DNA of 64,000 nt from Manis javanica (lineage: Eukaryota; Chordata; Mammalia; Pholidota; Manidae): the NCBI RefSeq assembly GCF_040802235.1, contig NC_133170.1, forward strand, positions 7,393,001-7,457,000, given 5' to 3'. A model generated the notes under the pieces. That model was not told the DNA's origin, did no database searches, and worked only from the letters and a program-made list of their open reading frames with translations. Shown here piece after piece: positions 19,791-28,337 of the stretch; the first letter of the stretch is position 1; each line of letters begins with the position of its first letter. A program made the position numbers and the translations under genes.

Positions 19791-19906
19791 TGTAGGATCT
19801 GAAGAATCAAAAGTTAGCATAAGTACAGCCATCTTAAGGCCTAAATACCACCCCCTAACCCAGAAGAAGCAAAATCATTAGAATCTTGAAAAACAAGTTA
19901 GTTAGC

Positions 19907-19952
19907 CTGTGTCAATTGTAGTGACCTTTCTGTGTCAATTGTAGTGACCTTT
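19907..19952 (+). promoter_or_regulatory. U3 tandem 23-bp repeat (enhancer-like)
   Basis: Two perfect head-to-tail copies of 'ctgtgtcaattgtagtgacc' plus TTT. Each contains the E-box-type palindrome CAATTG. Direct repeats at this place in gammaretroviral U3 commonly act as enhancers. The duplication is present in both LTRs (second copy 27939-27984). Confidence 0.7.
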
Positions 19953-20136
19953 AGTTAGCTAACCGTAAATCAGTTAATCATATATGCCTAGCTTATCTTA
20001 CTAGAACCACCCTAGACATTCCGTAGGTGATCTCATCTAATCAGACCCCAGGATGTGGCGCCAGCAAAAGATTTATGAGCCTATAGAAAAAACTCTGTAT
20101 TGTGATTATGGAAAATTTTACCCCTTTTGAAAATAC

Positions 20137-20143
20137 TATAAAA
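20137..20143 (+). promoter_or_regulatory. 5' LTR TATA box
   Basis: TATAAAA in 'aaatactataaaacc', 346 bp into the LTR and 87 bp before the AATAAA. This spacing fits a short gammaretroviral R region. Confidence 0.85.
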
Positions 20144-20223
20144 CCTTCTGCCTTAGTGTGCTCGGGGTCCTCGTTGAGACCTGCTGCGACAGGCTGACTT
20201 GGACCCCAACTAGTTGGCTTCCG

Positions 20224-20229
20224 AATAAA
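20224..20229 (+). terminator. LTR poly(A) signal AATAAA (5' copy)
   Basis: Lies in R of the 5' LTR. The functional copy is the one in the 3' LTR at 28256-28261. A CA cleavage candidate and a GT-rich element (tctttggtgagtg) follow. Confidence 0.8.
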
Positions 20230-20307
20230 TTCCTCTTGCTTGTTGCATCAAGAAACGTCTTTGGTGAGTGATTTGGGGCGGCGCCTTCCTCAGGGGAATC
20301 CAACATT

Positions 20308-25400: not shown

Positions 25401-25464
25401 GATGAACAGAACTCTAAAAGAGACCTTGACTAAATTGTCCATAGAGACTGGCTTATGTGATTAG
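22375..25464 (+). CDS. pol: Pro-Pol, open part up to an in-frame stop
   Basis: Read by UAG suppression from gag, so no own start is needed; the GTG at 22423 is not a real start. Protease has the aspartic motif DTGA (22453-22464). Reverse transcriptase carries YVDD (23398-23409) with LPQGFKNSPTLF upstream. RNase H has TDGSS with its Asp at 24307. Integrase has an HHCC zinc site (second Cys pair at 25018 and 25027) and the three catalytic acidic residues at 25111, 25288 and 25396. The frame then meets TAG at 25462-25464, after the third catalytic residue but before the C-terminal domain. The stop would remove that domain and part of the core's end, so a working integrase is not expected from this copy. 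Confidence 0.95.
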   Translation, partial: GRRGSEPLPEPRVTLKVEGQPVEFLVDTGAQHSVLTQARGPLSSKKSWVFGATGQKQYAWTTQRTVDLGVGQVNHSFLVIPECPTPLLGRDILTKVGAQISFQTEDTQVTDSKKRPLGLSILSIKLEDEYRLFKEPEPSRVNQRWLNQFPGAWAETAGMGLAVNQPPVVIELKASASPVTVRQYPMSKEARDGIRPHIQRLIEQGILVKCKSPWNTPLLPVKKAGTGDYRPVQDLREVNKRTQDIHPTVPNPYNLLSSLAPENTWYTVLDLKDAFFCLRLHQSSQPLFAFEWKDPSTGTTGQLTWTRLPQGFKNSPTLFDEALHQDLAFYRASNPQVTLLQYVDDLLIAAPTQEVCQAATEALLTELARLGYRASAKKAQICQQQVTYLGYSLREGKRWLTEAQKQTVTQIPVPTTPRQVREFLGTAGFCRLWIPGYATLAAPLYPLTKGAAPFVWGPQQQQAFDEIKKALLSAPALALPDVSKPFILFVDERSGVARGVLTQQWGPWKRPVAYLSKKLDPVSSGWPACLRVVAAVALLVKDSDKLTLGQKLTVVAPHALESVIRQPPERWMSNARMTHYQTLLLNRDRVEFAPPAILNPATLLPELGKEVLHTCQEILAEETGTRQDLQDQPLRGTGLLTWYTDGSSYIMDSKRMAGAAVVDDDRVVWASGLPTGTSAQRAELIALTQALRMAEGKRLNVYTDSRYAFATAHIHGAIYRQRGLLTSAGRDVKNKQEILDLLEAIHRPKEVAIIHCPGHQKDDSPIARGNRRADQAAKQAAQGMNILPLQVCPEATHIKSFQYTPEDLICIDKLGFKNSLPQEIYKSEKGKVVLPQREAAEYLRQLHQLTHLGAKNLKTLVRDSPYHVIKLGKLADEIVKNCVPCQLVNVSKNQAISGKRLRGDRPGAYWEVDFTEIKPAKYRYKYLLVFLDTFSGWTEAFPTKTETAQTVSKKILEEIFPRFGIPKVIGSDNGPAFVAQVSQGLAKILGTDWKLHCAYRPQSSGQVERMNRTLKETLTKLSIETGLCD

Positions 25465-25989
25465 TTAGTCCTCCTTCCCTTCGCCCTATTTAGAGTCAGG
25501 AACACTCCCGGCCGCTTTGGACTAACGCCTTTTGAAATAATGTTTGGGGCCCCAGCTCCGCTTCAGTCAGCACATCTTCATGTATTCCCTGAGTGTGCAA
25601 CTAATAAGTTTTTGCTTGAAAGGTTACGAGCCTTAGAAGCTGTGCAGAAAGAGGTGTGGGCCTCCATCAAGGAAGCCTATCGGCCAGAGGAACTCTCAGT
25701 GCCTCACCAGTTCCAGGTGGGAGACCCTGTCTATGTAAGAAGGCACCGGACAGGAAACCTCGAGCCACGGTGGAAGGGGCCTTTCGTCGTCCTCCTGACT
25801 ACTCCCACAGCTGTAAAAGTGGACGGCGTCTCTTCCTGGATACACGCTTCACATCTAAAGAAGGCACCCCCGGACCCAGACTGGCGAGTAACTCGGACTG
25901 ATAACCCCCTTAAGCTTCGCTTGTGTAAAAAGAATTATGCTGTTAGTAATTCTGATGTTTCTGCTACCTCCAACCCACCAGAACCCTAA
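25465..25989 (+). pseudogene. pol: Distal integrase fragment beyond the stop
   Basis: Continues in the same frame as pol with no other stop until TAA at 25987. It contains the NTPGRFGLTPFEIMFG segment and the C-terminal domain with GDPVYVRR and WKGPFVVLL, typical of gammaretroviral integrase. It cannot be translated from gag-pol in this copy because of the TAG at 25462. Its last 53 nt overlap the start of env, as in related viruses. Confidence 0.9.
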
Positions 25990-27770
25990 CCCTCATGAGC
26001 CCAGGTTACTGACATGGCAAATCATTACCCCAGCTTCCCGCCAAATAGTAGTCCAGATAACAGGACAACACCCTAAGGGAACCTGGTGGCCTACCCTCAC
26101 TGTAGACGTATGCACTCTTTTCAAGCAAGACCCTAAGTATGAGGACACAGTTGGAGTACCCGGATGTAGCACTCGGGATTATATAGTGCATTGGGGCTCT
26201 GGGACTATGAAAGAAATTCAAAGTGCCTGCTTTTATGTATGCCCGGCCCCCTCAACTGATGCTGAGGTCTCACAATGTGGAGGGCAGACAGATTTTTTTC
26301 TGTAAAAATTGGGGTTGTGAACAGACAGAGACATGCCATTGGCTGACAGGAAGCGCAGGGAGACCCCCTCCAGGCCTTATAAAAATCCAACGAGGTGCCA
26401 CTCATGCCCAGTGCAAGACTCATCCCACCTGCAATCTCATTGATATCTCCTTCACAGATGCAGGAAAAAGGGCAGCAAACTGGGAAAAGGGGCTTACTTG
26501 GGGACTAAGACTGTACCAGAGTGGGTATGACAATGGAGTCTTATTTATGCTCAGGCTAAAAGTAGAAACTCTCCCGGCTATCCCAGTGGGACCCAACACT
26601 GTCCTGCAGGACCGGCCGCGTCTCCCAGCCCCGGCCCCCGAGCAGACCCCAGCCCCCCCTGTAGTCTCTACCGCCGCTCCCTCTGTTTCCACTCCTGGTC
26701 AAGTTGCCCCTTTCCCTAGCACAGGACGACGCCTCCTTAACCTCCTTGAAGGAGCTTTTCAGGCCTTAAACACCACCAATCCTAAAACTACTGAATCCTG
26801 TTGGTTGTGTTTCTCTTCTGGGCCGCCTTATTATGAAAGATTAAGATTGTTAGGCAATTTTAATAAAACAACCCGTCACGAGATCTGTAGCTGGGGAAGC
26901 CACCGGAAACTAACTCTAACTGAAGTAACTGGAAAAAGAAAATGTTTAAGTACAGTCCCCCCCACCCATAAAGCCTTGTGTAATGAAACCGTAGCTATAA
27001 CCCCCTCAGGTAAAAATGAGTATCTAGTCCCTCCCCCCGAGGGATGGTGGGCTTGTAATACTGGAGTGACCCCATGTGTCTCTACTTCTGCCTTCAATTC
27101 CTCTCGCGATTTCTGTATTATGGTTCAGCTAGTACCCAGGTTAATGTATCATGATGATCTCTCATTCGTAACTGAATTTGAACCTAGGCATAGATATAAA
27201 AGAGAGCCGGTCTCGCTGACCTTAGCCGTGTTGTTAGGGATAGGAGTTGCAGCCGGAGTGGGAACGGGGGCAGCCGCTATTGTTCAAGGGAACCAGCATT
27301 ATGAAGGACTAAGGACTGCTATTGATGAAGACCTAAAAACAATAGAGCAATCCATTACAAAACTTGAAGAATCTCTAACTTCCCTCTCTGAGGTAGTCTT
27401 ACAGAATAGACGAGGGCTGGATCTACTGTTCCTAAAAGAAGGAGGACTGTGTGCAGCTTTAAGAGAAGAATGCTGCTTTTATGCAGATCATTCCGGGATA
27501 GTAAGAGATTCAATGTCAAAACTTAGAGAGAGGCTAGATCAGAGGAAGAGAGAGCGAGAAGCAGGCCAAGGACTGTTTAAATCTTGGTTCACCAGGTCCC
27601 CGTGGTTTACAACCCTGATATCCACTCTGGCTGGGCCCCTACTCATCCTTGTGTTGCTTCTAACTTTAGGACCCTGCATGTTAAACCGGTTAATAACTTT
27701 TGTTAGAGAAAGAGTGAGTGCCGTTCATGTACTAATGTTGAAGCAACAATACCACTCACTCAACTCCTAA
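25937..27770 (+). pseudogene. env: Env glycoprotein gene, one frame change
   Basis: Starts at ATG 25937, overlapping pol, with a hydrophobic signal peptide (MLLVILMFLLPP). The first frame covers the N-terminal surface-subunit part and stops at TAA 26303. The frame changes at a run of seven T (26293-26299), and the rest lies in another frame up to TAA 27768-27770. That part has a proline-rich hinge, a CWLC isomerase-type motif (26799-26810) and a furin-type site RYKR (27192-27203). A fusion-peptide-like Gly/Ala stretch follows. The immunosuppressive-type region with CX6CC (27450-27476), a membrane anchor and a cytoplasmic tail with YHSL complete it. As read it makes only a 122-residue truncated product. 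The open frame starting at 26223 is an accident of the shift. A homopolymer sequencing error is possible. Confidence 0.93.
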
Positions 27771-27803
27771 GAAGATACAAACATTCCATGATTGGAATGC
27801 CCC

Positions 27804-27822
27804 AAAAAGAGAAATGGGGAAA
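27804..27822 (+). other. Polypurine tract
   Basis: AAAAAGAGAAATGGGGAAA-type run directly before the 3' LTR (purines apart from one T at 27815). It primes plus-strand synthesis in retroviruses, and its position abutting TGTAGG supports the LTR boundary. Confidence 0.88.
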
Positions 27823-28337
27823 TGTAGGATCTGAAGAATCAAAAGTTAGCATAAGTACAGCCATCTTAAGGCCTAAATACCACCCCCTAACCCAGAAGAA
27901 GCAAAATCATTAGAATCTTGAAAAACAAGTTAGTTAGCCTGTGTCAATTGTAGTGACCTTTCTGTGTCAATTGTAGTGACCTTTAGTTAGCTAACCGTAA
28001 ATCAGTTAATCATATATGCCTAGCTTATCTTACTAGAACCACCCTAGACATTCCGTAGGTGATCTCATCTAATCAGACCCCAGGATGTGGCGCCAGCAAA
28101 AGATTTATGAGCCTATAGAAAAAACTCTGTATTGTGATTATGGAAAATTTTACCCCTTTTGAAAATACTATAAAACCTTCTGCCTTAGTGTGCTCGGGGT
28201 CCTCGTTGAGACCTGCTGCGACAGGCTGACTTGGACCCCAACTAGTTGGCTTCCGAATAAATTCCTCTTGCTTGTTGCATCAAGAAACGTCTTTGGTGAG
28301 TGATTTGGGGCGGCGCCTTCCTCAGGGGAATCCAACA
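27823..28337 (+). repeat. 3' LTR
   Basis: 515 bp, offset by 8032 bp from the 5' LTR with no mismatch found on reading. TATAAAA lies at 28169-28175 and AATAAA at 28256-28261, the latter expected to end proviral transcripts. The 23-bp U3 duplication is at 27939-27984. Confidence 0.97.

What the first reader, a model, noticed from the sequence alone, without database searches (positions are those of the whole stretch)
19791..28337. Very young full-length gammaretrovirus insertion
Two 515-bp LTRs with no difference seen, matching 4-bp target duplication, perfect primer site, open gag and only two lesions in pol and env. Identical LTRs mean integration too recent for substitutions to build up, so the locus may be polymorphic in the species and related copies may still be active. 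I do not recognise a specific named virus.
Basis: partly seen in the sequence, partly recalled or inferred. Interest (0 to 1): 0.9.

Follow-up and report, generated by a model that had tools for sequence, protein, structure and literature searches.

The report
Young Malayan pangolin retrovirus copy
This is a recently inserted, slightly broken retrovirus copy in a Malayan pangolin genome, one of dozens of near-identical copies that are on average under half a million years old and that probably spread with help from related copies.

Summary
At 19791-28337 lies a full-length gammaretrovirus-type provirus: 515-bp LTRs identical at 515 of 515 positions, GGTG target duplication, proline-type primer site, open gag, readthrough pseudoknot, one in-frame stop late in pol, one frame break early in env. 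The host is very probably the Malayan pangolin. The copy is not alone: 34 places share its exact 3' junction. In 31 of these both LTRs were found: 31 substitutions in 15,897 sites, mean age about 0.44 My; 30 of 31 have their own matching duplications. The env break recurs in 3 of 29, the pol stop in 1 of 29 other copies compared, so the env break at least predates this insertion. And 2 of the 34 hold a non-coding interior. Both favour mobilisation in trans, with recombination. Young invading ERVs in this species are in print (PMC10435555, passages), so this is a new member of a known kind. Insertional polymorphism could not be tested.

The parts
19787..19790 (+). target-site duplication GGTG, left copy
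19791..20305 (+). 5' LTR, 515 bp; TATAAA at 20137, AATAAA at 20224; two units of a 23-bp repeat at 19907-19952
20306..20325 (+). TT plus 18-nt proline-type tRNA primer binding site
   Evidence: tRNA assignment recalled
20446..20778 (+). open in-frame leader of 111 codons before the gag ATG, with a hydrophobic segment just before gag (glycoGag-like, recalled)
20779..22371 (+). gag: MA, PPPY, p30 capsid, CCHC nucleocapsid; open
22372..22433 (+). gag stop and gag/pol readthrough pseudoknot (RF01073)
   Evidence: 78.5 bits against a gathering score of 67.7
22375..25986 (+). pol: protease, RT, RNase H, integrase; one in-frame stop near 25.46 kb
25892..27767 (+). env: SU and TM in two frames, one frame break near 26.3 kb
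27811..27822 (+). polypurine tract next to the 3' LTR
27823..28337 (+). 3' LTR, 515 bp, identical to the 5' LTR
28338..28341 (+). target-site duplication GGTG, right copy

Best explanation
[quoted passage not shown] Its RNA, already carrying the env break and perhaps the pol stop, was packaged and reverse-transcribed with proteins from less damaged family members, with template switching between co-packaged genomes, and it inserted with a 4-bp duplication less than about 1.3 My ago. The family spread in this way, most of the dated copies within the last million years; it also carries a non-coding passenger with the same LTR, and bears marks like APOBEC3 editing. Shown: anatomy, copy number, LTR dating, sharing of the lesions, the non-coding passenger. 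Inferred: host species (by matching records), trans-complementation, recombination, the editing enzyme.
For: Anatomy. Host. 34 exact 3' junctions; 487 5' junctions within 3 mismatches; reversed-pattern controls 0. LTR pairs for 31 of the 34: 0 substitutions in 15, 1 in 8, 2 in 3, 3 in 4, 5 in 1; mean 443 kyr (301-629); 30 of 31 with matching duplications. Of 29 alignable other copies, env break in 3, pol stop in 1, both in 0. Among 15 copies, 74 of 496 pairs of informative columns show all four combinations, a count inflated by gap columns. Two of the 34 have the non-coding interior. G-to-A private changes fall at 15 of 173 GG sites against 10 of 443 other non-CpG G sites (p 0.0009); C-to-T shows no like bias at CC. 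Pol lies in a supported 9-row clade next to a clade with PERV-B.
Against: The pol stop could have arisen twice rather than be inherited or recombined. 26 of 29 copies lack the env break and 28 of 29 lack the pol stop. The editing case is moderate: non-CpG G-to-A against C-to-T is 25 to 12 (p 0.02), the direct GG against CC contrast is 15 to 6 (p 0.08), and one row with 20 private changes is mostly A-to-G (9). Whether any copy is intact throughout was not examined. No expression or particle data were seen.
Confidence: 0.76

Rival explanations
1. The lesions arose after insertion by ordinary host mutation in a provirus that was intact when it integrated.
For: 28 of 29 and 26 of 29 other copies lack the pol stop and the env break. 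Identical LTRs still allow up to about 1.3 My.
Against: Each lesion is also present in at least one other independent insertion. In the 1501-bp gag piece the window has no private change and equals 5 of 17 other pieces; in the 1301-bp pol/env piece it has one private substitution.
Confidence: 0.13
2. LTR identity or the env break is an assembly or sequencing artefact.
For: High-copy young repeats can be collapsed or mis-joined.
Against: 15-kb HiFi library, 37.5x, QV 55, manual curation (passages), long enough to span an 8.5-kb insert; matching duplications at 30 of 31 loci; the break recurs in 3 other copies. Raw reads were not seen.
Confidence: 0.05
3. Gene conversion between copies keeps old insertions looking young.
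For: LTR conversion is discussed for related ERVs (PMC4643047, passage). One of 31 pairs has unmatched duplications, as after exchange between proviruses.
Against: Internal pieces of the 29 alignable copies are also 97.8-99.8% like the window, and 5 of 17 gag pieces equal it over 1501 bp; conversion would have to cover whole elements.
Confidence: 0.06

Closest known systems
ERV-Gamma.(a-e)-Mpen lineages of the Chinese pangolin (PMC12584738, parts 1-3 of 5 read)
   Same: Pangolin gamma ERVs, PBS-Pro among their primer sites, PPPY and Cys-His box, group with porcine endogenous retroviruses, gamma insertion times from 0 to 18.38 My; five orthologous MPERV insertions with Manis javanica reported.
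   Different: Described in M. pentadactyla; lineage sequences were not held, so lineage identity is untested. The nearest annotated M. pentadactyla Gag is 338 of 365 identical in a MAFFT alignment, 88.7% by BLASTP.
ERVi elements reported for Manis javanica (PMC10435555, passages read)
   Same: Identical LTRs and the same host species; published as ongoing invasion.
   Different: ERVi must have intact genes and shown insertional polymorphism; this copy has two lesions and polymorphism was not tested. Whether those elements are this family is unknown to me.
MPERV1 and MPERV2, with MLERV1 and FcERV-gamma6 (PMC4643047, passages read)
   Same: Gammaretroviral ERVs of a pangolin; MPERV2 is a distinct, less studied family there.
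   Different: Window Pol lies outside the pair of snow leopard and Myotis daubentonii rows that I take, by recall, to stand for the MPERV1 group; MPERV1 proviruses are dated about 10 and 18 My. MPERV2 was not compared.
PERV (porcine endogenous retrovirus)
   Same: Pol of PERV-B is 71% identical over 95% of the query; neighbouring clade in the Pol tree.
   Different: Different clade and host; named PERV Env rows 49-51% identical.
Mouse VL30-type passengers (recalled; PMC4859993 seen in a listing only)
   Same: Non-coding interior between retroviral LTRs, spread without proteins of its own; resembles the pangolin side element.
   Different: No sequence comparison made; the pangolin element keeps an env TM fragment.

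Membership tests
Gammaretrovirus-type (class I) endogenous retrovirus | gag-pol-env order with MLV-type MA, p30, RT, integrase C-terminal and Env domains | tested here: met
Gammaretrovirus-type (class I) endogenous retrovirus | gag/pol readthrough site with pseudoknot | tested here: met
   RF01073, 78.5 bits
Gammaretrovirus-type (class I) endogenous retrovirus | Pol inside the mammalian gammaretrovirus tree | tested here: met
   45 rows, quick method, two lizard rows as outgroup
Gammaretrovirus-type (class I) endogenous retrovirus | 4-bp target duplication | tested here: met
   window; 30 of 31 family pairs
ERV-Gamma-Mpen lineages | nucleotide identity above 80-90% to a named lineage | not testable with these tools
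   lineage sequences not held
ERVi (invading ERV) | identical LTRs | tested here: met
ERVi (invading ERV) | intact gag, pol and env | tested here: not met
ERVi (invading ERV) | insertional polymorphism in the population | not testable with these tools
   one assembly held; empty-site request unanswered
MPERV1/MLERV1/FcERV-gamma6 | Pol groups with the bat and cat members | tested here: inconclusive
   one search places window Pol elsewhere, but the two rows standing for the group were chosen by recall

The most novel reading that the evidence does not exclude
The Malayan pangolin germ line hosts a retroviral helper-passenger system that is still running: less damaged copies drive the same LTR on env-broken, pol-broken and wholly non-coding genomes, with frequent recombination between them and cytidine-deaminase editing, so that many of the 34 youngest loci are unfixed in living pangolins.
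Probability: 0.45. Interest if true: 0.6.

Novelty: new member of a known kind. Interest (0 to 1): 0.45.

Why it matters
It gives a dated, mappable set of 34 near-identical junctions in a critically endangered species, usable as population markers, and a natural case in which inherited lesions and a non-coding passenger let one ask how far a retrovirus spreads by helping defective copies rather than by intact ones.

Tried and rejected
Viral-contig scans with Pol, an Env protein and an LTR pattern gave no relative; a phage-collection search with the LTR gave none. The top Pol hit by score (Nannospalax) is a protein with two RT copies at 65-68% identity, so it was rejected as a host clue. Ten of the window's 42 ORFs of 100 aa or more gave no Pfam family; no host gene was placed at the site. 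A first dating from 20 pairs (154 kyr) rested mostly on LTRs picked by likeness to the window and was replaced by the 34-junction set. A systematic sample of 18 wider-family 5' junctions (every fifth of the first 100) found a convincing 3' LTR in 6 of 18 at the guessed distance, so it was not used for dating. The context test let two labels collide; the counts were put right by arithmetic and retested. A possible excess on C19 (4 of 23, p 0.04) is not claimed; the 34-junction list has 4 there.
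Full report
What is there. The window holds a full-length provirus at 19791-28337: two 515-bp LTRs identical at every position, GGTG on both sides, a proline-type primer site, an in-frame leader and gag, the readthrough pseudoknot at the gag/pol border, pol, env and a polypurine tract. Pfam gives, among others, Gag_MA, Gag_p30, RVP, RVT_1, RNase_H, rve, MLVIN_C and TLV_coat. Gag is open. Pol has one in-frame stop between the integrase core and C-terminal domain. Env changes frame once in the N-terminal part of SU.

Host. The best Env hit is a 527-residue Manis javanica protein that starts inside SU; beyond the frame break it is 474 of 489 residues identical, and it runs in one frame across the place where the window shifts. 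Among the top Gag hits are M. javanica (341 of 361) and M. pentadactyla (338 of 365). The genome behind the window has 2,559,957,944 bases in 63 contigs, C1 of 241,980,339 and C19 of 141,798,549. The published Malayan pangolin assembly has 2.56 Gb, 62 scaffolds, longest scaffold 241.98 Mb, scaffold NG50 141.80 Mb, 19 pseudochromosomes, HiFi 37.5x, QV 55 (PMC11825179, passages). I take it to be that assembly; the one-contig difference is unexplained.

Phylogeny. In a Pol tree of 45 rows (quick method) the window falls in a starred 9-row clade with rows of Cnephaeus nilssonii, Nycticebus and Sorex and two unnamed rows, next to an 11-row clade with PERV-B (support 93, not starred); both lie in a starred 20-row set. 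It is outside the pair of snow leopard and Myotis daubentonii rows, which I take by recall to stand for the MPERV1/MLERV1/FcERV-gamma6 group of PMC4643047. Its highest identity in the tree is 77% over 767 columns.

Copies and dating. The LTR search scored 40 of 1690 candidates: 35 identical to the window LTR and 5 with one difference; two of the identical ones (L001, L014) are solo LTRs with their own duplications. A pattern over LTR end and primer site has 487 places within 3 mismatches, control 0. A pattern over polypurine tract and LTR start has 264 places within 3 mismatches, control 0, of which 34 match exactly, the window among them. I paired LTRs for 31 of the 34: the window, 16, 3; for three no 5' LTR was found where I looked. 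Substitutions between the two LTRs are 0 in 15 pairs (one of these has an indel), 1 in 8, 2 in 3, 3 in 4 and 5 in 1: 31 in 15,897 sites, on average 443 kyr (301-629) at 2.2e-9, the rate used in PMC4643047. The oldest single estimate is about 2.3 My. Matching 4-bp duplications flank 30 of 31; one pair on C2 does not match, as after exchange between two proviruses. For the window alone, 0 of 515 gives an upper bound of 1.32 My.

Lesions and the insertion. Of 32 other copies whose 1.3-kb pol/env piece was fetched, 29 align. The env break has the same gap pattern in 3 of 29, the pol stop is in 1 of 29, none has both (2 and 1 of 17 in the first set). The loci have different flanks and duplications. 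So the env break most likely existed before this integration; the pol stop either did too or arose twice. Their meeting in one copy fits recombination; among 15 copies 74 of 496 pairs of informative columns show all four combinations, a count inflated by gap columns. 25 of 29 copies lack both lesions; whether any is intact throughout was not examined.

Editing marks. Private changes in the two pieces (30 of 31 and 16 of 16 rows) include 39 G-to-A and 20 C-to-T. Outside CpG they are 25 and 12 (p 0.02). G-to-A is commoner where a G follows: 15 of 173 sites against 10 of 443 (odds ratio 4.1, p 0.0009); the mirror test for C, 6 of 251 against 6 of 422, shows no bias. This suggests APOBEC3G-like editing (enzyme recalled). 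It is moderate evidence: the direct GG/CC contrast is 15 to 6 (p 0.08), and one row with 20 private changes is mostly A-to-G.

A non-coding passenger. About 20 of the first 100 listed 5' junctions pair with a 3' junction at 4.8-4.9 kb instead of about 7.5 kb (counted by eye). Of two such elements I fetched 3.6 kb each, not the first kilobase. They are 98.9-99.5% identical piece by piece. The first 2.4 kb show no similarity to the window's gag or pol by blastn or tblastn, have stops in all six frames and 33-34% G+C; the last piece ends in an env TM stretch 93% like the window's. The middle 1.2 kb matches at 97-100% in each of the 40 places scored, the query included, of 2250 candidates. Two of the 34 exact-junction copies carry this interior: one on C5, whose two LTRs both equal the window's, and one on C10, whose 3' LTR differs from it by one gap. 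A third unalignable copy (L048) is unresolved. A genome that in the part seen codes for no gag or pol has thus moved recently with this LTR, so proteins were supplied in trans.

What was not settled. Polymorphism and the orthologous site in the Chinese pangolin could not be tested; the empty-site request did not complete. No gene was identified around the site.

Literature. PMC10435555 (passages) reports 412 invading ERVs in 123 vertebrates and lists Manis javanica and M. pentadactyla among threatened hosts. PMC12584738 (parts 1-3 of 5) describes gamma lineages in M. pentadactyla that group with porcine viruses, with insertion times from 0 to 18.38 My. PMC11341202 (passages) tabulates a Manis javanica ERV. 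PMC4643047 and PMC11825179 were seen in passages. Verdict: real, young, and part of a known phenomenon in this host.

Noticed in passing
G000 C1:200068029-200072927 and C5:105992912-105997807 (L163-L168), with others: Uniform short element: family LTR and primer site, at least 2.4 kb of non-coding A+T-rich interior, an env TM stretch and LTR; 97-100% identical in the 40 places scored; two of the 34 window-type copies carry the same interior.
   Followed up: partly
window 20446-20778: Open in-frame leader of 111 codons before gag with a hydrophobic segment (residues 92-110) and CTG codons, as in glycoGag (recalled); 3 of 120 listed gag relatives match it at E up to 0.01, two at 38-40% over about 80 residues.
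   Followed up: partly
window 19907-19952 and 27939-27984: Two units of a 23-bp repeat in the LTR; 4 of 13 further family copies have a 492-bp LTR with 23 gap columns against the window LTR, and one such pair is itself identical.
   Followed up: partly
window 21226-21292: Proline-rich 9-bp repeats in gag; 4 of 15 rows, window included, lack one unit.
   Followed up: no
G000 C2:145.75-146.91 Mb and C4:102-118 Mb: Clusters of wider-family junctions; the six on C2 share one orientation and nearly one spacing, so segmental duplication is likely.
   Followed up: no
G000 C2:102519534-102528079 (L029, L030): Identical LTRs but unmatched flanks (ATAT/TTGG), as after recombination between two proviruses.
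   Followed up: no
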